Origin: Trichococcus pasteurii
Lineage (GTDB): Bacteria > Bacillota > Bacilli > Lactobacillales > Aerococcaceae
Length of the DNA stretch: 64,000 bases
Assembly: GCF_900112935.1 (NCBI RefSeq)
Contig: NZ_FONM01000008.1
Coordinates: forward strand, 1-64,000
Direction of reading: 5' to 3'
Shown: positions 462-55,771 of the stretch, in pieces
Layout: the number at the start of each line of letters is the position of its first letter
Numbering within the stretch: the first letter of the stretch is position 1
Translations under genes and position numbers: made by a program
Notes under the pieces: generated by a model
What the model saw: only the letters and a program-made list of their open reading frames with translations
The model's database searches: none
What the model was told of the DNA's origin: nothing

Positions 462-1691
462 ATGGATAGTCAACTAGCTGAGCAACTAACCATCATTTTC
501 CCAGACAAAGTGATACCTGATAACATTCAACAATTTTACAGAAAAATTGAAGACCACCATATTTTAGATGATATATCGGCATATTCCGTTCTGTATCAGG
601 ATAAGGAAAAATTAAAAAAACTGCTAAATTTACATGGATTTTCCTGCAATTGGCCAACAAAAGCCATAAACCATATGGGCCATAAACAGGGAGTGGGTAC
701 TTCTCCTGATCAAGAAAATGCAAACGTTATCAAGTTGGGTGCGGATAACCAAAGTAAGACCCTTACGGATACTCCGGCTTGGGATGATGATTTTGATCTT
801 GATGATTTTTTGGAGTCCGAAGAGTTTTCCACGAGCATGCAACAAAATGCTGATTTAAGTGACTTTAGGTTTAATAAAGAAATGATACGTGACTATCAAC
901 AGGATAACCAAGAGGCTTTGAAGGAAGCAATCGTAGAAAATAATCAACGTTTGGTATGGAAAATTGTGAAGATGTACAGGCGCCACAATACTTCGATCAG
1001 CTTAACGGAGGAAGACCTGATGATATCAGGGAATATAGGCCTTCTAAAAGCTATTGAGAGATTTGATCCCGACATGGGTTTTGAATTTTCCACATATGCG
1101 ACGAACTGGATACGACAAAGCATATCAAGAGATATCATGGATTTTGGATATATGATTCGACTCCCTGTACACTTAGGAGAAAAGTTGAATAAACTGAATC
1201 GTGTCGAGAGTGAGTTTCAAATCAAATATCCAAACTATTCAATTGAGGAGATTTGCTCTGCTTTGGAGATTGATAAAGAGGAGTACTTGAAACTCAAGAC
1301 GTACGAATATCAATACCGAAATATGTCCAGTATTGATAAAGCCATAGGTCCAGATGGGGATACTGCGCTAATAGACTTACTCCAGAATAATCATGCTGTC
1401 TCATCGGATGATTCAGAAAATGAATTACTGAAAGCACCTGAGGAACTGACGGTCAGCAAAGCGGTAGCGCAAGAAATCAATAGCTTGTTGATTGATACTT
1501 TGACCGAGAGAGAATGCAGTGTTGTAAAAATGAGGCTTGGACTGGATGGCGAGGAAGAACATACTCTGGAGAAAATTGGAGAAAAATTTGGCGTGACCAG
1601 GGAACGCATTCGACAGATTGAATCAAAGGCTCTGGAGAAAATAAGAAATCATATGAACTTTTTATTAGCTACGAAGGGGGATTACTTGTGA
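462..1691 (+). CDS. Sigma-70 family RNA polymerase sigma factor with an unusual N-terminal domain
   Basis: The protein has 409 residues from the ATG at 462, which follows AAGGTGA by about 6 bases; an in-frame ATG at 447 has no ribosome binding site. Sigma region 2 is clear at about residues 155-227 (NQRLVWKIVKMYRR, GLLKAIERFDPDMGFEFSTY, ATNWIRQSISRDI). Region 3 follows, and region 4 with its promoter -35 reading helix is at the C-terminus (VTRERIRQIESKALEKIR). So it is a full region 2-3-4 sigma of the primary/stress type, not a short ECF sigma. Residues 1 to about 140 are not a recognisable region 1.1 and include an acidic linker (DDDFDLDDFLESEE). Its stop overlaps the start of the helicase gene, so the two are co-translated. 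It may direct RNA polymerase to this cassette or sense polymerase takeover by phage; both are inference. Confidence 0.9.
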   Translation: MDSQLAEQLTIIFPDKVIPDNIQQFYRKIEDHHILDDISAYSVLYQDKEKLKKLLNLHGFSCNWPTKAINHMGHKQGVGTSPDQENANVIKLGADNQSKTLTDTPAWDDDFDLDDFLESEEFSTSMQQNADLSDFRFNKEMIRDYQQDNQEALKEAIVENNQRLVWKIVKMYRRHNTSISLTEEDLMISGNIGLLKAIERFDPDMGFEFSTYATNWIRQSISRDIMDFGYMIRLPVHLGEKLNKLNRVESEFQIKYPNYSIEEICSALEIDKEEYLKLKTYEYQYRNMSSIDKAIGPDGDTALIDLLQNNHAVSSDDSENELLKAPEELTVSKAVAQEINSLLIDTLTERECSVVKMRLGLDGEEEHTLEKIGEKFGVTRERIRQIESKALEKIRNHMNFLLATKGDYL

Positions 1692-4600
1692 TTCAAATAC
1701 TAACAGACCAGACACTACTAAACTATTCAACTGATCAAAAAACCTCAGATAGGAAAACAATCTATGTCTTGAAAGGATTCGACATCTCGCAGATTGAGTC
1801 TTTAAGTAATAAGCTGTTTCAGTTTCCTGTCTATGAGAACCTAGAAATATTACTTAAAAATAAAGCGAAAATGACAGTGGACATAGTGCTTAAAGCAACT
1901 GCAGCGGAATCAGAATATTATTGGTGTACCTACGAAGAATTTATGACAGCACAAGATACCCTCTATGATTTTTTTGAATGTGAATGCATTGAGAATAATC
2001 TGTACAACAAATTATACCCCTATCAAAACACGTTGACTGATATATTCGCGGTTTATGAAGAAATTTACCATAATGATGATGAGGAAATCTCTGCATCTCA
2101 GGAAGAGAAACTAAATGCTGTTTCGATTTACTATGGGAAAATCTACTACAATGCCTCGAATGAAAAGTATTACGTAACCTATGAAGCCCCAAAAATAGAC
2201 TTCAATAAAATCATTCCATTCATCGACAAAAGCAATTTGAAAGTCGTTCCTATAATAAATGATTATTCGAGCGAGGAGGAGCTATATTCATTTGAGTTAG
2301 GCGATAGCGAAGATGAATTTCTTCATTTTACCGAAAAAATGGAAAATGGAAATATAGTTAAGAAAGTCAGGATATTTTTTGCTGATGAAAGAGGGAGCTT
2401 GCCCAACAACTATGATGAGCGGATCGCAATCATACAGTACCTTGCTGGGGAGGAATACCAGATATTTCTGGCTACGAAACAATTAAACTCACGAACAATC
2501 GAGCGCGAAAATGAATACAAAGAAATTTTGAAGGCCTATTGGGGTTATGACTCTTTTAAAGATTTAAAGATGTACAAGGACATTGAGACATTGGGGAAAG
2601 AAACGATTGAAGTGTCTCAAGCTCAGATTATTGATGATATCATTGAGCAATCGGAAAATTCTATCCAAGGTCAAAGTTTTCGAGACGTATATGTTACTTC
2701 TTCCACTGGATCCGGAAAATCTGTCATGTTTCAAATACCAGCGCTGTATTTAGCCAACAAGTTTAAAGATGACGGTTTTTTAACAATCGTAATCTCGCCT
2801 TTGATTGGCTTGATGGATGATCAAGTAAAAAGTATGGAGCTGCGCAATATAAGTAATGCTAAAACGATCCATTCAAACTTATCCCAAATGGAAAAAGAAG
2901 ATATTATTTCGGGAGTACAAGCCGGTACGGTAGACATCCTGTATATATCAACGGAGACTTTGCAAAGTCGCTCGGACATCGGGATGCTGATTGGACAACG
3001 AAGAGTCGGCTTGTTGGTTGTGGATGAGGCCCATATTGTAACGACTTGGGGGAAATCATTCCGTGCGGATTACTGGTATATGGGTTCTTACTTGGCAAAA
3101 ATGAGGAAGAAGCAAACTTTCCCCATCGTGACTTTTACTGCGACTGCAATATACGGCGGTAAAGAAGACATGTACTTAGAAACAAGAGACAGCTTGAACA
3201 TGGTCAATCCAATCGCTTATTTCGGTTATGTAAAACGCGATGATATCCTCATGTGTGTGCAGTCATCACAAAAAGAGTTTACAAAATATTCCCGAGAATA
3301 CATCAAAACAAAATTTGAAATAATGGGCAAACGTTTAACGAGCTTTGATCGCAAAAAGGAAAAAACGCTTGTCTATTTTCCTACCGTCAGAACTTTGAAC
3401 ATGTTCAACAGTCATTTAAAGCAGAATTATTCTTCGGTTGCGGAAAAGACAGCGCTTTATTATGGTAGCCTAGATAAACATGAGAAAAAAGAGAGCCTAA
3501 AGGAATTTAAAGACGGTGACGCTAAAGTGATGTTGGCGACTAAAGCATTCGGGATGGGAATAGACATACCCGACATCCACAATGTGTATCATTATGCACC
3601 TACAGGAAATGTCATAGATTACATTCAAGAAATTGGTAGAGCTGCGAGAAGTTTGCCTGAAGGTTATGCTTGGTTCGATTTTTTGCCGCAAGATTTCACA
3701 GAAGTAAAGAGATTGCATGGTATGTCTACTATAAAGAAACAGCAATTGATTGAGGTAATGAGAAAGATCGTTTCTCTTTATGAGCAAAAGAAAAACAGAA
3801 ATATCGTGGTCAGTGCCGATGATTTCAAATACATATTCAATCAGAATGAATTAGAGGATTCGGATATCGACAATAAGCTGAAAATAACCTTATTGATGAT
3901 CGAGAAAGATTTTGAATCCACGAAAAAATTGAGCTATTCACCATTTGTTGCCAGGCCTAGAGCCATGTATGGGAATGAGCTTGTTTTTCTCTCAAAAAAA
4001 GGAAAAAAATTATTGGAGTCATCAAAACTGAAAAAGTATTTTACGGAAGAAAAGCAACTTGATACTGACTATTATGATTCGATTTGTCAGATGAACTTCA
4101 AACAATTATGGGAAGACAGATATCCATCCATGTCTTTTCCACAATTCAAATATAAGATGTACACAGAAGTGGATGAACTAAAGGATCAAAAGATTCTCAA
4201 AGAAATCAGTCCTGCCATGGGCGTAGAAATCAATTATTTAAAGAATGATGTCCAAACCGTCATTGCGAGTATAAACCTCGTGCTGGCTGCCCTGGAAGAA
4301 TTTCTACGAGGGAAAGTCTATTCCAAAACGTATTTCAATGAAAAAATGATCAGTGAATTTTTACAAACTAAGCTGGGTATTCAAAACAGATTTGAAGCAC
4401 TAGGTTTGAGTAGTGTACTTCTGAATTCACTTATACAGGTCAGCAAGATAAAGAATGCCGGGTACATAAAGGCTCGTGATGAGCGCGGTGACCTATATAA
4501 TGTAACTCCGCATTATATGACCTACTTTGACCAAATGAAAAGAACAATCAATGATTTATTCTATGGGGAAAAATTTGCTGATAAGTATGATGACAAGCTC

Positions 4601-4984
4601 GTTTTTTATGCCCAACGGAGCAGCAAAAACGAGAAGCTAGAGTTGGAACAGGTATTGTTGGGTGTCGCTGAAGCAGCGGGAGCATTGTCATATGAAATCA
4701 TAAGTGGAAATTCCCCGCAAATCTATATCCGCATAAACAGCATATATCAATTAGAAAAAGTTATTAAGGCCCCTCAAAAATACAACAACCTGATTCTGAA
4801 AAGCGTTCATGAACGGCACAATATCAGTGTTGAACTGTTGTCCTATCTTTTTAAAATGGAGAAGGAAGGCGCAACCAAAGACGAAAAGCTTCGAAATTAT
4901 ACAGAAAAATTCTGGGATGTCATCGAGGATTACTTCTTAGGGAAGTTACCTGATTCTGTTCAGGCCAAGTTGTATAGGAATTAA
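1688..4984 (+). CDS. Large RecQ-like superfamily 2 DNA helicase
   Basis: The 1098-residue protein starts at a GTG that overlaps the sigma stop codon (GTGA), with AAGGGGGA about 7 bases upstream. All SF2 motifs are visible: Walker A TGSGKS at 340-345, motif Ia ISPLIGLMDDQ, DEAH box at 446-449, motif III TFTATA, motif V ATKAFGMGIDIPD and motif VI QEIGRAAR at 647-654. The motif Ia and V wording is RecQ-like. It is nearly twice the length of a housekeeping RecQ. The first 320 and last 400 residues are unrecognised, and I do not see the RecQ zinc-binding or HRDC domains. ATP-driven DNA unwinding is the expected activity. Its place between a sigma factor and a nuclease-fold protein suggests that they act together. 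Confidence 0.9.
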   Translation: MIQILTDQTLLNYSTDQKTSDRKTIYVLKGFDISQIESLSNKLFQFPVYENLEILLKNKAKMTVDIVLKATAAESEYYWCTYEEFMTAQDTLYDFFECECIENNLYNKLYPYQNTLTDIFAVYEEIYHNDDEEISASQEEKLNAVSIYYGKIYYNASNEKYYVTYEAPKIDFNKIIPFIDKSNLKVVPIINDYSSEEELYSFELGDSEDEFLHFTEKMENGNIVKKVRIFFADERGSLPNNYDERIAIIQYLAGEEYQIFLATKQLNSRTIERENEYKEILKAYWGYDSFKDLKMYKDIETLGKETIEVSQAQIIDDIIEQSENSIQGQSFRDVYVTSSTGSGKSVMFQIPALYLANKFKDDGFLTIVISPLIGLMDDQVKSMELRNISNAKTIHSNLSQMEKEDIISGVQAGTVDILYISTETLQSRSDIGMLIGQRRVGLLVVDEAHIVTTWGKSFRADYWYMGSYLAKMRKKQTFPIVTFTATAIYGGKEDMYLETRDSLNMVNPIAYFGYVKRDDILMCVQSSQKEFTKYSREYIKTKFEIMGKRLTSFDRKKEKTLVYFPTVRTLNMFNSHLKQNYSSVAEKTALYYGSLDKHEKKESLKEFKDGDAKVMLATKAFGMGIDIPDIHNVYHYAPTGNVIDYIQEIGRAARSLPEGYAWFDFLPQDFTEVKRLHGMSTIKKQQLIEVMRKIVSLYEQKKNRNIVVSADDFKYIFNQNELEDSDIDNKLKITLLMIEKDFESTKKLSYSPFVARPRAMYGNELVFLSKKGKKLLESSKLKKYFTEEKQLDTDYYDSICQMNFKQLWEDRYPSMSFPQFKYKMYTEVDELKDQKILKEISPAMGVEINYLKNDVQTVIASINLVLAALEEFLRGKVYSKTYFNEKMISEFLQTKLGIQNRFEALGLSSVLLNSLIQVSKIKNAGYIKARDERGDLYNVTPHYMTYFDQMKRTINDLFYGEKFADKYDDKLVFYAQRSSKNEKLELEQVLLGVAEAAGALSYEIISGNSPQIYIRINSIYQLEKVIKAPQKYNNLILKSVHERHNISVELLSYLFKMEKEGATKDEKLRNYTEKFWDVIEDYFLGKLPDSVQAKLYRN

Positions 4985-5034
4985 TATCAAAACATCTGGA
5001 GAACATGACCATAAACCAAAAAGGAGCCCATCCC

Positions 5035-6156
5035 ATGAATGATACTATTTTCGATTTTCTGAGATCTTATGTGCCCAGTGACAAAAGAGACCCCAAAGAG
5101 GATTACCTGACGCAATTGTTTGCATGGTTGCTGATAAAAGTTAAAGGTTTAGACCTGAAGTATTGTGAGTACCTATTGAAAAAAATACCGAACAGCACAT
5201 TTACTGTAACTGATTCTGACACCATCACTGTAGAGACGCAAAGAACGCTGGATAATGGGAAACGGATTGATTTGCTGATTAAAGTAAATGAAAATGGGTT
5301 CATTTGTGAGCATAAAATCTACAGTATGCTATCACCAAATCAAATTATGAATTACAGTAGCATGGCGCCTAGCATAGGAAAGGGGCAATTCCATACGGTG
5401 CTGATTACTTTAGGCACTTATCAATGGACACAGCCGGCGGACGTACGTATTTTGTGGAGCAGCTTATATCGGGATTTCCTGCAGATGGAAATAAAAAATT
5501 ATGTAGATGATTCAGTTGATTATTTTATGTTGGACCAAACACTAAACTTTATGCAGAACAATAGTCTCGGGACATATGGAGAAATCACTCCGGGGGCGAT
5601 AGCGGGGTATTGGGAAACGTTTGGGCTTAAAAATGTTGTCAATAATCTTGTTGAAAATCTAAGAGTCCGGGAATGGGATTCAAAGTGCAAAAATTTACAA
5701 CATTGCAACACGCAAGGTTTTACTGAACCAATCTTCCGCAAGGAGCGATGGGGCAGAGTAGGACTTGAAATGTACAGCAATTGGAGTCCGGGAATCTTTG
5801 CGGGTATCCTGTGGGATTATTCGAATCATGGGATAGAACCTTTAAACGAAAAGAACGGTGGTCCTGATGTTGTTATCCTAGTGGATCTTCCTGAAGTAGG
5901 CTACGCCCAAGTTACCAGTACTCAAGCATGCACGGATTATTTTCAGAAACTGAACCAAAACCATGGTGATTTCGATCTGATTCATTTCCCTGAGCCAAAA
6001 GATCACTGGAGATTAATAGTTCTTAGAAAATCATTGGGTGATGTATTGCAAGGAAAGCAAGGTCAAAAAGAACAGGAAAATGCATTGTACGAAACATTTT
6101 GTGATGGAATCAAACTACTGACAAAGGACGGAGATTTGGGGAGATTGAATTGGTAA
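5035..6156 (+). CDS. PD-(D/E)XK nuclease-superfamily protein
   Basis: The protein has 373 residues. The ATG at 5035 is preferred because AAAGGAG lies 9 bases before it; an upstream ATG at 5005 has no such signal. The core reads E22 (PKEDYLTQLFAWLL), then D79 in KRIDLLIKV, then E92-x-K94 in CEHKIY. This is the E...D...ExK pattern of PD-(D/E)XK nucleases, fitting a type seen in defence-associated proteins. The C-terminal 200 residues are not recognised. It begins 50 bases after the helicase gene with no terminator, so it belongs to the same operon. It probably cuts DNA in concert with the helicase (inference). Confidence 0.8.
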   Translation: MNDTIFDFLRSYVPSDKRDPKEDYLTQLFAWLLIKVKGLDLKYCEYLLKKIPNSTFTVTDSDTITVETQRTLDNGKRIDLLIKVNENGFICEHKIYSMLSPNQIMNYSSMAPSIGKGQFHTVLITLGTYQWTQPADVRILWSSLYRDFLQMEIKNYVDDSVDYFMLDQTLNFMQNNSLGTYGEITPGAIAGYWETFGLKNVVNNLVENLRVREWDSKCKNLQHCNTQGFTEPIFRKERWGRVGLEMYSNWSPGIFAGILWDYSNHGIEPLNEKNGGPDVVILVDLPEVGYAQVTSTQACTDYFQKLNQNHGDFDLIHFPEPKDHWRLIVLRKSLGDVLQGKQGQKEQENALYETFCDGIKLLTKDGDLGRLNW

Positions 6157-6222
6157 ACGCCAAATAATATTTCATCAGCACGGAGTATCTGAGGGAAGTC
6201 CGAATCAAGTAGCAGTTCAATT

Positions 6223-6230
6223 CCCCCCCC
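6223..6230. repeat. C8 homopolymer tract
   Basis: Eight consecutive C residues lie in the AT-rich gap between the nuclease-like gene and the TIR/SEFIR gene. A 7-bp inverted repeat (AATTCAC/GTGAATT) follows at 6243-6261. Tracts like this can slip during replication and change promoter spacing. That is a possibility here, not something the single sequence shows. Confidence 0.4.
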
Positions 6231-6378
6231 ATGATTACTATCAATTCACTACTGGTGAATTATCTTATTGTCAATTTCGCAGCTATCTTTTTTGCCGTCT
6301 ATTTGGGTTGTTTAATGAATTTGAAAATTTGGTGTTAATATTTTGAAATCAAAATTGTGCTATGTGGAGGATCAAAAG

Positions 6379-7305
6379 ATGAGAAACATCTTTATATCAT
6401 ACAGTTGGGATAATGAATCTCATAAAAGTTGGGTAAAAGAATTTGCAGACTTTCTTTCATCTAAAGGTTTTGAAGTTGCTTTAGATCAGGATGATCTTGT
6501 CCTAGGAGATGAGCTACCTGAGTATATGGAGGTTCAAATTAGAAGTGCAGATTACATCTTAGTAGTATGTACTCCAGAATATAAAAGGCGAGCTGACGAA
6601 AGAATCGGTGGAGCAGGCTACGAGAGTAGTTTGATTGCAGGAGAGCTCTACGCAAAGCAGCAAAAAAGAAAATTTATCCCAGTATTAAGGAAAGGGACAT
6701 GGGAATCAGCGCAACCGTCCTTCTTGATTGGAAAAATGGGTGTGGAGTTCTGTTCTGGTAAATTTGAGGGGATATCGATGGATAATCTTCTTGCTACGTT
6801 AAATCAAGGTGAAAACACAACACCAGCATGGAAAAAAAGATATAGTCAAAGTTCAGTATCCGCTAAAAAGCAAGAGTCTGATAGTATCAATGAGTATGTA
6901 GATATAAAAATTACAGGAATACTTATTGATCAAGTCACATTACCTAAAATGGATGGCACTCAAGGCAGCGCTCTTTATAAAGTTCCATTTGGATTAAGCG
7001 CAAGACCAAGTGGAACTTGGGAAAAACTATTTATTCAAAATTGGAATTATCCATCCCGTTTTACAACCATGCACCGTCCGCGAATTGCCAGTGTGGTTGG
7101 GAAAACTGTGGTATTGAACGGGACTACCATTGAAGAAGTTGAAAAATATCATAAAGCTACACTTATACTTGCGGTGAATGCGGCGAATATTCAGGAACGT
7201 AGGATGTTAGAGGAACAAATGAATCGACAAGAATTGGAAAGAAAAAGAGAACAAGAGCACCGAAATCACATTTCCGATATTGCTTCCAAAATAACATTTG
7301 ATTAA
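6379..7305 (+). CDS. TIR/SEFIR-domain protein
   Basis: The protein has 308 residues from the ATG at 6379, which follows GTGGAGG by 8 bases; a TTG at 6343 is unsupported. Residues 1-125 form a TIR/SEFIR-type domain: FISYSWDNESHKSWVKEFADFL, then DQDDLVLGDEL, then ADYILVVCTPEY, then ESSLIAGELYAKQQKRKFIPVL. The SYSWD opening is typical of SEFIR and bacterial TIR defence proteins. E82 or E89 lies about where NAD-cleaving TIR domains carry the catalytic glutamate. Residues 185-285 are an unknown domain, and the tail is a charged helix rich in Glu, Arg and Gln. The domain is common in abortive-infection systems. It sits on the same strand, 220 bases after the nuclease-like gene, and may have its own promoter. 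Confidence 0.8.
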   Translation: MRNIFISYSWDNESHKSWVKEFADFLSSKGFEVALDQDDLVLGDELPEYMEVQIRSADYILVVCTPEYKRRADERIGGAGYESSLIAGELYAKQQKRKFIPVLRKGTWESAQPSFLIGKMGVEFCSGKFEGISMDNLLATLNQGENTTPAWKKRYSQSSVSAKKQESDSINEYVDIKITGILIDQVTLPKMDGTQGSALYKVPFGLSARPSGTWEKLFIQNWNYPSRFTTMHRPRIASVVGKTVVLNGTTIEEVEKYHKATLILAVNAANIQERRMLEEQMNRQELERKREQEHRNHISDIASKITFD

Positions 7306-7368
7306 TGTAATATCGGGATGCATGCATCAATCTGACAAGAAATTTAAAAACGTTCAGAATATATAAAA

Positions 7369-7430
7369 AATAAGTGTATCGGAACCTGAAAGTCCTAGGC
7401 GCAGGGCTTTCAGGTTCCGATACACTTATT
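7369..7430. repeat. Near-perfect 28-bp hairpin between TIR and Lys-rich genes
   Basis: Two 28-base arms (7369-7396 and 7403-7430) are complementary except for one T-G wobble and enclose a 6-base loop (AGGCGC). The ends are AAAATAAG on the left and CTTATT on the right, so it could act as a terminator for the TIR gene. The stem is much longer than usual for a terminator, and only a short T-rich stretch follows. It could also be a small non-autonomous inverted-repeat element or a structured RNA. Confidence 0.7.
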
Positions 7431-7498
7431 GGATTGGTATGTAAGCGCATAATTTTTGGCGGGGTGTATGATTATTAGTATTTGAAAGGAGCCAGACA

Positions 7499-8047
7499 AT
7501 GTCAGACAGCATAATTCGTGTAGGCAGAAGAGGCAGCAATTTTATCGACGCTAATCTCTTGGTATTTCCGACTAAGAAATATCCAAAAACCAAAAAGCGT
7601 GCTGGGAAAAAAGCAGCTGTACCGAAAGGAAAGAAAGCCAAACCAATCATAGTAAGTAAAGTAAACAAAGAAAAGCAAACGCTTTGCTTGATTAAGTATA
7701 GTCAAATGATTGCGGATGACCTAGAAAATCAAGGGAAGTATAAGCGGATGTTCTATGCATTTTATCCAGACTATCCTAAAGAAAACTTTAAAAAATTTGT
7801 GAATATGTATTATGCAGTCGTTAAAAATAAAAAATTCAAGTACGTGGCTCAATCTCAAGAAATCCGGCATTTACTCTCATATTTCACCAAGGAAGCCGAG
7901 CACGAATTATTGATACGATTCATTAATAAATTGTATCACTTTGAAAGTGAGCATCCCGATTCGGTCACGCCACGTGTGAAAAAACGCTGCAACCAACTGT
8001 TGGTAAGTAAAAATCATACAGAGCTTTTTGGCATCACCATGGGCTAG
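7499..8047 (+). CDS. Lys-rich hypothetical protein of the accessory cassette
   Basis: The 182-residue protein starts at an ATG preceded by GAAAGGAG about 9 bases upstream. I do not recognise its family. Residues 25-62 are strongly basic (KKYPKTKKRAGKKAAVPKGKKAK), like a nucleic-acid-binding tail. The remainder, from about residue 65, is predicted helical with many aromatic and Lys residues. No signal peptide or membrane segment is visible. It follows the TIR gene across the long hairpin and is closed by a strong terminator, so it may be the last member of the cassette or a passenger gene. Confidence 0.6.
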   Translation: MSDSIIRVGRRGSNFIDANLLVFPTKKYPKTKKRAGKKAAVPKGKKAKPIIVSKVNKEKQTLCLIKYSQMIADDLENQGKYKRMFYAFYPDYPKENFKKFVNMYYAVVKNKKFKYVAQSQEIRHLLSYFTKEAEHELLIRFINKLYHFESEHPDSVTPRVKKRCNQLLVSKNHTELFGITMG

Positions 8048-8297: not shown

Positions 8298-8479
8298 ATT
8301 TTGGGGGCATAGCTACACGTGCCTCATATGTATTTCGAGAATGATTCGGTCAACCTTTTCAGAAAGCGCCCGCATAAATTAATTACCGAAAGAGCGTCGT
8401 AAAGCCCCTTGCTTTAGCTTTGGGGATATAAGACGTGCACTTGGTTGTATTATATATATGATTGATGTATAATGTGTGT

Positions 8480-8890
8480 ATGGAAAATAAAATATACAAA
8501 TCAAATAATGACGTCATTTATTCTTGTACCTACCATGTTGTCTGGTGTCCAAAATATCGGCGAAAGGTCCTTGTCGGACCAGTAGCGGCACGCTTAAAGG
8601 AGCTCATTGTAGAAACGTGCACCGCTCTATCCGTCGAAATTCAGGAAATGGAGATCATGCCAGACCACGTTCATCTTATATTGGATATAGACCCACAATT
8701 CGGGGTTCACAAAGCAGTCAAACGCATCAAGGGAGTATCTTCCCGCGTGCTGAGACAGGAGTTTAAGGAACTGACGACGAAGCTACCCACTCTTTGGTCG
8801 AACAGCTATTTCGTTTCCACGGTGGGTGGGGCACCGCATGAAATGATTCAGCAATACATCCAAAGCCAAAAGACCTCACAACGCCAGTAA
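8480..8890 (+). CDS. tnpA: IS200-type TnpA single-strand transposase (HUH/Y1)
   Basis: The protein has 136 residues from the ATG at 8480; a TTG at 8462 and an ATG at 8465 are in frame and no start has a strong ribosome binding site. The HUH motif is H63-V-H65 in MPDHVHLIL, and the catalytic tyrosine is Y126 in MIQQYIQSQ. The N-terminal YHVVWCPKYRRKVL is the usual signature of the family. TnpA excises and inserts the element as a single-stranded circle. It precedes tnpB by 34 bases on the same strand, the usual IS605 layout. All key residues are present, so it looks functional. Confidence 0.95.
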   Translation: MENKIYKSNNDVIYSCTYHVVWCPKYRRKVLVGPVAARLKELIVETCTALSVEIQEMEIMPDHVHLILDIDPQFGVHKAVKRIKGVSSRVLRQEFKELTTKLPTLWSNSYFVSTVGGAPHEMIQQYIQSQKTSQRQ

Positions 8891-8924
8891 ATACAAAGTA
8901 ATCATCAAGAAGGGAGGAACACGT

Positions 8925-10439
8925 ATGGCTAAAAGCAAAACAGCTTCATTTGTCGTAGAGCTGCGACTGGTCACGTATCAAAATGAACAAGCAGTGCTGG
9001 ATAAGCGTTTCAAAATCGCTGAAAAACTGTATAATAAAGTCTTATACCATGCGCGGACGCAGCTGACAGAATTGTATAAGAACCGTCGATACCAAGACGT
9101 GCTGGCAGAACGCCGCTTGGCTATCAAAGCAAAGGACAAGAAACATGAGAGCGCGTGCAACAAGGAGTTGCAAGCTATCCAAAAGACCTTCGGGATGACG
9201 GAATACGCTTTGCATGCTTACATCGGACGGCTGCGCGAGGCGTATAAGAAGCATATCGACAGCTTCACAGCACAGAAAATCGCTTCTACGGTCTGGACAA
9301 GTGTGTCCTCCCTTCTGTATGGCAAAGGCAAAAAGGTACGCTTCAAAAAGTTCGGACAGCTGGAATCGTTGGAAGGCAAGTCGAACGCTACGGGCATACG
9401 CTTCAAAGGCGACCGTTTGGAGTGGAACGGGCTGGTTCTGCCCGTCACTATCCGTGCCAACGATTTATTTGTTCAGGAATCCCTTTCCTTGCACCGGGTG
9501 AAATACTGCCGTATCGTACGCAAGGCGTTCAAGGGCGGCAATCAGTACTTCCTGCAACTGGTGTTGGAAGGTATCCCGCCAGTGAAACGCAACAATAATA
9601 CAGGGATGCCTCGCCGAAAACCCGCTCCGAATGCGGAAGTGGGCATCGACATCGGCACCTCTACGGTGGCGGTGGCAGGTGATGACGGCGTCATCTTGAA
9701 GGAATTATTTCCAGAAGGAGCGTCCTATGACCGCGCGATTCGTCTGTTGCAACGAAAACTGGACCGGAGTTGCCGTACAACAAACCCCGCCAACTTTAAT
9801 GTCGACGGCACCGTCAAGCAGGGGGTCAAGTTGACCTGGGTACGGAGCAGGAACTACATGAAAATAATGTTTCGCTTGAAGGACCTCTACCGCCGTCGGG
9901 CGGTGGACTTAAAGGAAGCTCACAACAAAACCGCCAATGCCATCCTGGCACTGGGTAATCAGGTTTATGTGGAGGCCATGGATTTCCGCGCATTGATGAA
10001 GCGGGCCAAAGAGACCACAGTCAATAAAGGCGGGCGATTCAATCGTAAGGGGCGCTACGGCAAGTCCATCGGCTATCATGCGCCGGCTATGTTGGTCGGC
10101 ATCGTGAAGCAAAAAGCACCCCAAGAAGGGGGTGCGCTGTACGAGGTGGATACCTTTAAATTCCGTGCCAGCCAGTATAACCACGCAAATGATACGTATA
10201 TCAAAAAGACACGTGACGAACGTACGACCTTTGTTGGTGGGCAGCTTGTCCAACGGGATCTGTACAGTGCATTCCTCCTGAAAAATAGCCAACCGACACG
10301 CAATGAAACTGACCGCAAAAAATGTAGCACGACGTTCGCCACCTTCATGGCGCACCACGACACCTGCATCCAGACACTCTGCCAATCAACCGGACGCCAG
10401 TCCCGCAATTTCGGACTGCGAGACTTTCAATTTGCTTAA
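8925..10439 (+). CDS. tnpB: TnpB-family RNA-guided nuclease without a visible zinc ribbon
   Basis: The 504-residue protein starts at an ATG with AGGGAGG upstream. RuvC-like acids are in place: D242 (VGIDIGTSTVAVAG), E350 (VYVEAMDF) and D445 (VQRDLYSAF). The N-terminal half has the helical, basic character of TnpB. The paired CxxC motifs normally found between the second and third RuvC acids are absent, and the protein is about 100 residues longer than a typical TnpB. TnpB proteins cut DNA under guidance of an RNA made from the element's right end and help retain the element. Intact catalytic acids suggest activity, but this subgroup may differ from the studied ones. Confidence 0.85.
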   Translation: MAKSKTASFVVELRLVTYQNEQAVLDKRFKIAEKLYNKVLYHARTQLTELYKNRRYQDVLAERRLAIKAKDKKHESACNKELQAIQKTFGMTEYALHAYIGRLREAYKKHIDSFTAQKIASTVWTSVSSLLYGKGKKVRFKKFGQLESLEGKSNATGIRFKGDRLEWNGLVLPVTIRANDLFVQESLSLHRVKYCRIVRKAFKGGNQYFLQLVLEGIPPVKRNNNTGMPRRKPAPNAEVGIDIGTSTVAVAGDDGVILKELFPEGASYDRAIRLLQRKLDRSCRTTNPANFNVDGTVKQGVKLTWVRSRNYMKIMFRLKDLYRRRAVDLKEAHNKTANAILALGNQVYVEAMDFRALMKRAKETTVNKGGRFNRKGRYGKSIGYHAPAMLVGIVKQKAPQEGGALYEVDTFKFRASQYNHANDTYIKKTRDERTTFVGGQLVQRDLYSAFLLKNSQPTRNETDRKKCSTTFATFMAHHDTCIQTLCQSTGRQSRNFGLRDFQFA

Positions 10440-10649
10440 CAAATGGATATAGCAACCAAAAGGTTCAGCTGCGAGCCTTCAACGTTAATGGTGCCACTGG
10501 GCGCCTTGTTGAGAAAGTCTACGGGCTATTGGGAATAGAACGGAAATAGAAAAACGACATCCCCATTTTTGTGGAAATGCCGCCAGTACGGTCCGTGACG
10601 TCCCAACCGCCCTTGGAACCCCCTGGATTTATCCATGGGGAGCAGTCAG
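10440..10649 (+). ncRNA. Probable right-end guide RNA (omega RNA) region of the element
   Basis: The 210 bases between the tnpB stop and the element's right boundary hold several GC-rich inverted segments and the terminal hairpin. In studied IS605-type elements this is where the guide RNA of TnpB is encoded, with the guide read from the DNA just outside the right end (here from about 10650). The placement is by analogy, and the RNA itself is not proven by sequence alone. Confidence 0.5.
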
Positions 10650-10697
10650 ATATGTGACAAAAGTATATAGACTGTGAGGTAGGAGAGTGATGATAGG

Positions 10698-11654
10698 GTG
10701 CGAAATGTAAGCAAAATGATGGTTATAATTGTCTCTGTTTGTGTCATCGCGGTTTCATCCATCTATTATAATTATAAATTCGTCAGATACGACAGTGAAA
10801 AAATTGTTTTTGGAGCCACTTATATGACCATGAACAACAGCTTTTACAAGGCCATAACAGATGAAATAGAAAAACAAATCAATGATCGTGGGGATATCTT
10901 ATACACCCGTGATCCAGCTTTGGATGTCGATAAACAAAACGAACAAATCAATGACTTGATCGAGATGGGGATTGATGTATTGATCATCAACCCGGTTGAT
11001 TATTCGAAAGTGAATGATTCTTTGAAAAAAGCCAAAGAAAAAGGTATCAAGATTATTGTCATTGATGCGCAGCTGGATGACGATACGATTGCGGATACGA
11101 CGGTTTTGTCCAATAATTATGATGCTGGCGTGCAATGTGCCAAGGATATGATGCGCAATCTGTCTTCGGCAAAGATTGTGCTTTTAAAACACAGTGCTGC
11201 TTTATCGTCTGTTGACCGGATCAACGGTTTTCTGGATACGATCAAAGATAATCCTAATTATACGGTTGTTGCAAGTGAAGAGTGTTTGGGCCAAACGGAA
11301 GTCGCGATGCCCGTAATGATGGAAATCATTGATAAAAAAATCGATTTCGATGTTGTGATGGCTTTAAATGACCCCAGTGCATTGGGCGCTTTGGCTGCAA
11401 TAAAAGATAAACAAATCAATCATGAAGTACTGGTTTATGGCGTGGATGGTTCCCCGGATATGAAAAAACTATTGATTGACAGTGATGAAGTCCAGGGAAC
11501 TGCAGCACAATCGCCTACTACGATGGGGGCTAAAGCGATTGAAGCAGCTTATAAAATTGTTAATGATGAAAAATATGAGAAGTCGATTGTTGTGCCGGTT
11601 ACCTTAATAACCAAGAACAACATCAGCGAATATGATATTTCGGGGTGGCAATAA
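10698..11654 (+). CDS. Membrane-anchored sugar-binding sensor protein (RbsB-like fold)
   Basis: The 318-residue protein starts at a GTG at 10698 after AGGAGAG; an in-frame ATG at 10716 is the alternative. One hydrophobic segment at residues 6-25 has no convincing lipobox, so it is probably an uncleaved anchor. The rest is a periplasmic-binding-protein type I fold (FGATYMTMNNSFYKAITDEI, MGIDVLIINPVDY, VYGVDGSPDMKK) of the ribose/xylose-binding kind. It is joined to the kinase gene by a one-base overlap (TAATG) and no ABC permease is nearby. It probably binds a sugar outside the cell and passes the signal to the kinase, as described for XylFII-LytS in Clostridium. Confidence 0.85.
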   Translation: MRNVSKMMVIIVSVCVIAVSSIYYNYKFVRYDSEKIVFGATYMTMNNSFYKAITDEIEKQINDRGDILYTRDPALDVDKQNEQINDLIEMGIDVLIINPVDYSKVNDSLKKAKEKGIKIIVIDAQLDDDTIADTTVLSNNYDAGVQCAKDMMRNLSSAKIVLLKHSAALSSVDRINGFLDTIKDNPNYTVVASEECLGQTEVAMPVMMEIIDKKIDFDVVMALNDPSALGALAAIKDKQINHEVLVYGVDGSPDMKKLLIDSDEVQGTAAQSPTTMGAKAIEAAYKIVNDEKYEKSIVVPVTLITKNNISEYDISGWQ

Positions 11655-12952
11655 TGATCAATTTAGAGACGAAGCATATAGCTTATATTCATAATTCCTT
11701 ATTGCTACTGAATTTTATCATCGTATTGTTTAATGCCTCCATCTTTTTGCTTTCGACAAAATACTTGCAGGCCCACGGATATGCCTCTGCGTTTTTGGAA
11801 AACCTGTCTTATGTCCCTCCGGCTCCGGAAAAGACTTTTTTTGGGGCGATCCTGTTGTTCTTGGTATTACTGGCGAGCATGTACTTCCGCACGAAAGACA
11901 GTTATATCGTTTATTGGCTGATTTATCTGGAAATTATCGTAATGATAACGTTGATAATCGTTTTGAACGGCAGTTACAATGGTATCGTGTTATTGGTGTT
12001 CGCTGATATTTTGTACAACACAAAGAAAATTAAATATTGGCCGGCATTGCTGATCATCAGCTTTGGCCTGCTGATCATCTCTGATTATGCCATTCTTTCG
12101 CTCATTGTCAGAATGCCATCGATTGAAACCTATATCAATTTTTATCCCAGCGGAGCCAGAACGTTGATCTTGTTCTTCAGAAATATCCTTGCCTCGCTGA
12201 ATATCGTAGGCTTCATTTCTTTTCTGGCAACTTCTTTATTTGTCCAACAAAAAGAAAAACAACGTGTCGGAGAACAATTGGCGATGGTCTCACGCGTAAA
12301 TGTCGAATTGAAGAATTATGCCAATCTGACTGAAAAAATCGGTGAAGATAACGAACGGAAAAGAATCTCCCGAGAAATACACGATACGCTGGGCCATGCT
12401 CTAACCGGAATATCTGCGGGTGTGGATGCCTGCATTGCCATCATTGATATTGACCCGGAAAAAACGAAACAGCAATTGCTGCTGGTCAGTGATGTTGTCA
12501 GGATGGGCATTAAAGATGTGCGGCGTTCCTTATATAAATTGCGCCCGGGCGTTTTGGAAGACAGCACGCTAAAAGATGGGTTGACCAAAATGATTGCCGA
12601 ATATGAAGGCGTGTCCAATCTGAAAATAGATTTATATTACAAATGGGATAATGTTGATATTGAAAATACGAAAGAGGACATTATTTTCAGGATGATCCAA
12701 GAATCCATCACCAATGCTTTGCGGCATGGGCACGCCACAGAGATTGAAATCAATATGTTCGTCTACGATGATGAATATGTCATCATCATCCAAGATAATG
12801 GTACGGGCTGTGAAAGCATTAAATGTGGTTATGGGTTAAAGCAGATGTGTGAACGCGTATCGATTTTAAACGGTACGATCAGATTTTCTGGCGAGAACGG
12901 TTTTAGAACTGCCATAGAAATACCGATCGAAAGGGGAATAAATTATGATTAA
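11654..12952 (+). CDS. Membrane sensor histidine kinase (NarL/DesK-type)
   Basis: The protein has 432 residues from the ATG at 11654, which overlaps the preceding stop; an in-frame GTG at 11645 is less likely. About six hydrophobic segments fill residues 10-195. The HisKA_3 dimerisation helix carries the phospho-accepting H243 (RKRISREIHDTLGHALTGI). The ATP-binding domain follows, with the N-box near FRMIQESITNALRHG and the G-box at DNGTGC. It lacks its own sensor domain outside the membrane and so probably relies on the binding proteins on either side. It phosphorylates the response regulator encoded next, with which it overlaps by 8 bases. Confidence 0.92.
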   Translation: MINLETKHIAYIHNSLLLLNFIIVLFNASIFLLSTKYLQAHGYASAFLENLSYVPPAPEKTFFGAILLFLVLLASMYFRTKDSYIVYWLIYLEIIVMITLIIVLNGSYNGIVLLVFADILYNTKKIKYWPALLIISFGLLIISDYAILSLIVRMPSIETYINFYPSGARTLILFFRNILASLNIVGFISFLATSLFVQQKEKQRVGEQLAMVSRVNVELKNYANLTEKIGEDNERKRISREIHDTLGHALTGISAGVDACIAIIDIDPEKTKQQLLLVSDVVRMGIKDVRRSLYKLRPGVLEDSTLKDGLTKMIAEYEGVSNLKIDLYYKWDNVDIENTKEDIIFRMIQESITNALRHGHATEIEINMFVYDDEYVIIIQDNGTGCESIKCGYGLKQMCERVSILNGTIRFSGENGFRTAIEIPIERGINYD

Positions 12953-55454: not shown

Positions 55455-55771
55455 ACTGTGTCTATGAATCACAGCCATACAGAAAAAAAGCAAAGAAGAG
55501 GAAAGTACTGGTTGGATAGTCCTTCAGAGAGCTCTTGGTCGGTGGAAAAGAGCGGACGGCAGCACAGGAAAAATGGCCTCGGAGTTGATGCGTTGACAGG
55601 GATTTTCCTGCAGACGTATCCGGACGCCCCCGTTAGTCAGGCAACGGTATCGAGCGCAGCAAAAGGCTCTGTACCGGTTGAGGCGGCAAGCGCAAGCTTT
55701 TCGCGAAAAAAGGTGGAACCACGATCTAACAGTCGTCCTTTCTGGAACAATCCAGGAAGGGCGGCTTTTTA
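55455..55771 (+). promoter_or_regulatory. T-box leader with a probable ATG (Met) specifier
   Basis: Stem I motifs are present: AAAGTACTGG (55502), the distal CAGAGAGC...GGTCGGTGGAAAAGAGC, and a lower helix GAGG (55498-55501) with CCTC (55577-55580). The specifier, placed before the conserved purine (G55576), reads ATG at 55573-55575. The T-box sequence AAGGTGGAACCACG is at 55710-55723. The terminator is a 14-bp stem (55732-55745 with 55752-55765) followed by TTTTT. Uncharged tRNA would favour readthrough into the operon. The tRNA-end-binding base is A55717, which would pair with U73, whereas bacterial tRNA-Met usually has A73, so the amino acid is not certain. Confidence 0.9.

What the first reader, a model, noticed from the sequence alone, without database searches (positions are those of the whole stretch)
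462..8047. Sigma factor + RecQ-like helicase + PD-(D/E)XK protein + TIR/SEFIR protein: candidate new defence system
A full-size sigma-70 gene overlaps a 1098-residue RecQ-like helicase, followed by a PD-(D/E)XK protein, then a TIR/SEFIR protein and a Lys-rich unknown. The cassette is AT-rich and bordered by an IS1634-type transposase and an IS605 element. Helicase, nuclease and TIR modules are common in defence islands, but a dedicated sigma factor in the core operon is unusual and I recognise no named system with this set.
Basis: partly seen in the sequence, partly recalled or inferred. Interest (0 to 1): 0.85.

Follow-up and report, generated by a model that had tools for sequence, protein, structure and literature searches.

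The report
Mobile sigma factor plus helicase pair
A transcription start factor and a DNA-unwinding enzyme travel together as a two-gene unit through many bacterial genomes, mostly among antiviral genes, and I found no named antiviral system that matches the pair; the nuclease and TIR genes next to it here are separate neighbours.

Summary
The sigma-70 gene (462-1691) and the 1098-aa RecQ-like helicase gene (1688-4984) are a pair: in 74 of 75 other genomes with enough upstream sequence, in five phyla, the sigma gene lies beside the helicase gene (63 co-directional, 6 with one SF1-helicase gene between, 5 divergent), against 1 of 21 ordinary RecQ loci. These sigmas form a lineage apart from housekeeping SigA; some carry restriction-enzyme domains (a degenerate HsdR nuclease domain, or the DpnI winged helix). 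Surroundings are strongly enriched in defence genes. In Trichococcus the pair sits in a defence hotspot; the sister species has it there without the nuclease, SEFIR and Lys-rich genes, which are independent cargo (the SEFIR protein matches the named bSEFIR system). PADLOC knows only the helicase, as a "possible alternative Cas3", yet no CRISPR array lies near any of 80 loci. Most likely it is an antiphage module in which the sigma couples a DNA-acting helicase to RNA polymerase or promoters. Function is inferred, not shown. MZA, another system with a sigma factor, is a partial precedent.

The parts
462..1691 (+). Core gene 1: sigma-70 family factor of a separate lineage. N-terminal helical domain (about 6-62), disordered acidic linker, regions 2, 3 and 4 kept; no region 1.2 match
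   Evidence: ORF opens at 447, ribosome-binding-like AAGGTGAT before 462
1688..4984 (+). Core gene 2: RecQ-like SF2 helicase, 1098 aa: unknown N-domain (1-265), RecQ core (266-665, Walker A, DEAH and motif VI intact), unknown C-terminal region (666-1098)
5035..6156 (+). PDDEXK_4 nuclease-like gene, about 50 bases after the helicase; accessory or neighbour, not conserved with the pair
   Evidence: (PDC-S26 models, best 2e-8)
6379..7305 (+). SEFIR/TIR gene, relative of bSEFIR; independent neighbour
   Evidence: (bSEFIR 6e-57)
7499..8047 (+). Lys-rich unknown protein; also found at the same hotspot in another Trichococcus without the pair
   Evidence: 82% DNA identity to L142
2..316 (+). 3' end of an IS1634-family transposase at the contig edge
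   Evidence: 100% identical to annotated IS1634 transposase
8387..10649 (+). IS200/IS605 insertion (tnpA 8462-8890, tnpB-like 8925-10439), absent from the sister species
10650..12952 (+). Right flank of the defence hotspot: periplasmic-binding-protein and histidine-kinase genes shared across the genus

Best explanation
A mobile two-gene antiphage module. The RecQ-like helicase is the DNA-acting part. The sigma factor is its dedicated partner and ties it to transcription: it keeps the RNA-polymerase-binding and SigA-type promoter-reading elements but has a replaced N-terminus, and brings the helicase to RNA polymerase or promoter DNA of the invader, where unwinding blocks phage gene expression or replication or exposes DNA to nucleases encoded nearby (type I restriction, HNH, NERD, PD-(D/E)XK). 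Shown: conserved pairing, intact helicase and sigma motifs, separate lineages, defence-island location, mobility, restriction-type domains fused to the sigma. Inferred: defence function, physical contact of the two proteins, promoter targeting, fate of the DNA.
For: Pairing: 74 of 75 testable loci, three gene orders, 36 of 63 adjacent pairs overlapping; control 1 of 21. One supported helicase clade of 87 rows holds the module sigmas; relatives outside it lack them. Sigma and helicase distances correlate, r = 0.82, highest of 2000 permutations 0.11. Module sigmas are split from 30 SigA by one branch, support 99. Sigma fusions: HSDR_N (6e-12) and DpnI_C (2e-22, 2e-18, 6e-6). 107 nearby genes hit 180 PADLOC models at 1e-20 against 12 for 107 control genes. 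Trichococcus hotspot holds PglX/PglZ/DrmD, DISARM, Druantia or SIR2 genes in other genomes. Patchy: 2 of 13 genus genomes. Also on plasmids.
Against: No experiment. Linked genes inherited together correlate without touching. The sigma may only express the operon. The HsdR-like domains fused to the sigma lack the full D-ExK site. No shared promoter motif was detectable upstream. Defence-island company does not prove defence function.
Confidence: 0.42

Rival explanations
1. Expression switch: the sigma only transcribes its own operon (helicase and accessory genes), keeping it on or turning it on when a phage disables the host SigA. The helicase alone does the defence.
For: Polymerase-binding and DNA-reading elements are SigA-like and intact (TRERIRQIE helix identical to the host SigA). 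Divergent arrangement with 55-77 bases between start codons in three of five divergent loci. MzaA is a sigma in a validated system (PMC9523054).
Against: SigA-like specificity gives little reason for a dedicated sigma; no promoter motif above shuffled sequence; restriction-type domains fused to the sigma; pairing restricted to one helicase clade although downstream genes vary.
Confidence: 0.3
2. Sensor or decoy: the sigma mimics SigA so that phage anti-sigma proteins or phage takeover of RNA polymerase engage it, which releases or activates the helicase.
For: Primary-type sigma with rewired N-terminus, divergent from SigA; strict pairing with the helicase.
Against: No direct evidence; the near-invariant promoter-reading residues are not needed for a pure decoy.
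Confidence: 0.12
3. Not defence: a plasmid or island maintenance, transfer or repair function that sits in islands because it is mobile.
For: Found on plasmids and beside integrases; RecQ enzymes act in repair; one outgroup relative lies in a prophage beside a tape-measure gene.
Against: About 15-fold excess of defence models nearby; HsdR and DpnI domains fused to the sigma; third genes are often nucleases, restriction genes or helicases.
Confidence: 0.12
4. One reading: sigma, helicase, PD-(D/E)XK and SEFIR act together.
For: The genes run the same way and the nuclease start is about 50 bases after the helicase stop.
Against: Sister species has the pair alone at the same site; nuclease in none of the other 80 loci, SEFIR in one on the opposite strand; SEFIR matches a named stand-alone system.
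Confidence: 0.04

Closest known systems
MZA system (MzaABCDE), sigma factor MzaA
   Same: Sigma-70 family gene inside a defence operon; MzaA is the best defence-library match of this protein (137 bits PADLOC, 217 bits NCBIfam).
   Different: Score far below the MzaA cut-off of 800 and limited to the general sigma part; MzaB-E absent; partner here is a RecQ-like helicase.
PADLOC model C3a193, 'poss. alt. Cas3'
   Same: Full-length match of the helicase (474 bits, residues 16-1086).
   Different: Model of one protein, not a system; no CRISPR array near any of 80 loci.
RecQ helicases (RecQ, RECQL5, WRN, BLM)
   Same: Helicase core 266-665 with all SF2 motifs; fold match Z 25-36.
   Different: Below RecQ equivalog cut-off (192 of 640 bits); N- and C-terminal regions match no solved structure by sequence; no RQC or HRDC Pfam match.
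PsyrTA and Dpd (DpdF) RecQ-like helicases
   Same: RecQ-like helicase of a defence system.
   Different: Only the core aligns; the partner here is a sigma factor.
Type I restriction (HsdR)
   Same: HSDR_N domain fused to some of the sigmas; hsdM/S/R genes nearby in about a dozen loci.
   Different: Fused domain lacks the full catalytic site; no fixed link to hsd genes.
bSEFIR
   Same: Window gene 6379-7305 matches it (192 bits).
   Different: It is a neighbour, not part of the pair.

Membership tests
MZA | MzaA above curated cut-off | tested here: not met
   217 bits against 800
MZA | MzaB-E genes in the operon | tested here: not met
   No Mza hit for the helicase or the other window genes at 5005-8047; only sigma and helicase recur in most loci
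CRISPR with alternative Cas3 (C3a193) | Helicase of this family | tested here: met
   474 bits, near full length
CRISPR with alternative Cas3 (C3a193) | CRISPR array nearby | tested here: not met
   0 of 80 loci and none in the window by a simple repeat scan; 2 of 20 control stretches gave arrays
RecQ | SF2 helicase core of RecQ type | tested here: met
RecQ | RQC and HRDC domains, equivalog score | tested here: not met
   192 bits against 640; no RQC or HRDC Pfam match
PsyrTA | PsyrT-type helicase plus PsyrA partner | tested here: not met
   Core-only match to PsyrT, no PsyrA hit among the window genes scanned
Housekeeping SigA | RpoD C-terminal model above cut-off, region 1.2 | tested here: not met
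   191 bits against 354, host SigA 414; no Sigma70_r1_2 match in 12 of 13 module sigmas scanned
Functional sigma-70 factor | Regions 2 and 4 with polymerase and promoter contacts | tested here: met
   Pfam matches and near-invariant residues; SigA fold Z 15.6
Antiphage system | Protection against phage | not testable with these tools
   Needs an infection experiment
bSEFIR (window 6379-7305) | bSEFIR protein model | tested here: met
   6e-57, profile 35-286 of 412
bSEFIR (window 6379-7305) | Abortive response on infection | not testable with these tools
   Needs an infection experiment

The most novel reading that the evidence does not exclude
Promoter-guided immunity: a sigma factor, freed from housekeeping duty and given a new N-terminus, acts as the targeting subunit of a defence helicase, so that foreign DNA is attacked at its own promoters when transcription starts.
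Probability: 0.25. Interest if true: 0.9.

Novelty: new variant of a known kind. Interest (0 to 1): 0.62.

Why it matters
Sigma factors are the cell's promoter readers; one that is strictly tied to a defence-island helicase, and that has more than once acquired restriction-enzyme domains, suggests immunity linked to transcription initiation. The only precedent I know of for a sigma in a defence operon is MZA, and its role there is, to my knowledge, unknown. The pair is small (4.5 kb), widespread in Bacillota, and can be cloned and tested directly.

Tried and rejected
Four-gene system: rejected by synteny in the sister species and absence elsewhere. CRISPR link suggested by the C3a193 name: no arrays. 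MZA membership: score and partners fail. Consensus-type promoter shared upstream of sigma genes: no excess over shuffled sequence (mean 8.89 in both). Known domain in the helicase N- or C-terminal regions: no credible sequence match to PDB (both) or Pfam (N-region); the structure comparison was filled by the helicase core, so a known fold there is not excluded. Phage-borne copies: only core-type RecQ matches in phage records; three IMG/VR relatives are sigma-less and fall outside the sigma clade. Literature for a named sigma-RecQ system: none in the open-access library, which lacks most subscription papers. The careful sigma tree did not finish; the quick one is quoted.

Full report
Observation. 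The sigma start at 462 is plausible (ribosome-binding-like AAGGTGAT); the nuclease and SEFIR genes probably start at 5035 and 6379. The window begins at base 1 of a contig, so the left border is a contig edge inside an IS1634 transposase, confirmed by 100% identity to annotated IS1634 proteins.

The unit is two genes. Using a helicase alignment, 201 relatives were found in one-genome-per-species assemblies and the best 80 fetched with flanks. A sigma-70 gene lies next to the helicase gene in 74 of the 75 loci that have upstream sequence: 63 upstream on the same strand (36 with overlapping ends, 25 within 25 bases), 6 about 2 kb upstream with a 655-aa-type SF1 helicase gene between, 5 divergent. 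The six remaining loci are five cut by contig ends and one true absence (L115). Among 21 loci of ordinary RecQ-type hits with 1.5-kb flanks, one had a sigma hit. The same pair is on an Enterococcus faecium conjugative plasmid, Lactiplantibacillus plasmids and an Exiguobacterium plasmid. No other gene family recurs in more than 15 loci.

Lineages. In the helicase tree, 87 rows form one supported clade in which 82 have the sigma, four are contig-cut and one lacks it; the relatives outside it have none, apart from L008, where a sigma of more SigA-like type lies downstream. In two outgroup genomes the helicase instead follows a NERD nuclease gene, intact in one and apparently broken in the other. 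Sigma and helicase pairwise distances correlate at r = 0.82; this shows co-inheritance, not contact. The module sigmas are separated from 30 SigA proteins by one branch (support 99, quick unrooted tree). Hosts cover Bacillota, Spirochaetota, Ignavibacteriota, Deferribacterota and Melainabacteria.

The sigma. It scores 191 bits against the RpoD model while the host SigA scores 414. Regions 2 and 4 are intact: R385, E386, R387, R389, Q390, W221, Q224 and R228 are invariant in 69 sequences, and the TRERIRQIE helix that reads the -35 element is identical to host SigA (role from established sigma-70 knowledge). Region 1.2 has no Pfam match in 12 of 13 scanned. The N-terminus varies: HSDR_N in a Peptoniphilus (6e-12), DpnI_C winged helix in three lactobacilli, region 1.1-like helices elsewhere (by eye). 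Aligned with real HsdR proteins, three fused HSDR_N-type domains have lost part of the D-ExK site. AlphaFold gives a confident helical N-domain and SigA-like core for the window protein.

The helicase. Walker A, DEAH and motif VI residues are invariant or nearly so. The predicted structure (mean pLDDT 87) matches RecQ enzymes over about 266-665. The N-terminal 265 and C-terminal 430 residues are conserved in the family but match nothing known by sequence. PADLOC holds one near-full-length model, C3a193 'poss. alt. Cas3'; no CRISPR arrays were seen near 80 loci.

Surroundings. Of 107 sampled genes within 3 kb of the pair, hits at 1e-20 fall on 180 PADLOC models; 107 genes from 20 arbitrary stretches of genomes of the same phylum hit 12 (models are redundant, so this is a ratio of model hits, not of genes). 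Downstream genes vary: type I HsdM/S/R in about a dozen loci, HNH_2, SLFN_AlbA, NERD-UvrD, DrmD-like SNF2, type II restriction enzymes.

The site in Trichococcus. Between a LacI-type regulator and a binding-protein/histidine-kinase operon, genus members carry different cargo: PglX, PglZ and DrmD plus the pair (G398, T. alkaliphilus), DrmA/DrmB and a cytosine methylase (G407), DruE (G409), a SIR2-like gene and the Lys-rich gene (G405), an ABC transporter (G406), almost nothing (G399). Two of 13 genus genomes have the pair. In G398 the pair stands without the nuclease, SEFIR and Lys-rich genes. These window genes are therefore separate cargo; the SEFIR protein is a bSEFIR relative with 45% identical full-length homologues on E. 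faecalis plasmids beside a recombinase gene; the nuclease has no close relative in the 75 other family genomes.

Mechanism. What is shown is a strictly paired, mobile, defence-island unit with intact helicase motifs and a promoter-reading sigma with a replaced N-terminus. I consider a coupling role most likely (sigma brings the helicase to polymerase or promoter DNA), because the N-terminus has more than once taken up restriction-type domains and because the sigma stays with one helicase clade whatever the other genes are. A pure expression role is nearly as plausible and the upstream sequences do not decide it. Antiphage activity itself is inferred.

Known or new. No paper in the held library names a sigma-RecQ system; MZA is the precedent for a sigma in a defence operon. 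I file it as a new variant: a candidate defence system with an unusual partner, not a new kind proven.

Noticed in passing
window 7369-7430: Near-perfect hairpin with arms of 28 bases right after the SEFIR gene (-47.5 kcal/mol, z -11); present only here in the 13 genus genomes. Possibly a two-way terminator or element end.
   Followed up: partly
window 8925-10439: The tnpB-like ORF of the IS605 element scores below the Pfam OrfB_IS605 cut-off (25.1 against 30.5); an atypical or decayed TnpB.
   Followed up: no
window 55484-55743: T-box leader RNA (113 bits).
   Followed up: no
L077, L079, L080, L083, L086, L088, L092, L099, L102, L112: A 655-671-aa SF1 (UvrD/Schlafen-type) helicase gene joins the pair in ten loci of gut-type Bacillota, in six of them between sigma and helicase genes: a possible three-gene subtype.
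   Followed up: partly
L009:648-1298 and L010:1116-1298: Outgroup helicases without sigma are preceded by a NERD-domain nuclease gene (NERD 2e-34 in L009; only a short fragment in L010), a sigma-free sister arrangement.
   Followed up: partly
L144:10131-11567: An M28/M42-type peptidase gene between a PglX/PglZ/DrmD set and the sigma-helicase pair in T. alkaliphilus.
   Followed up: no
upstream of sigma in L058, L060, L065: By eye, a shared inverted repeat (ATATTGNAATAT-like) over the -35 position and an extended -10-like TGGTA.TAT: a possible operator.
   Followed up: no
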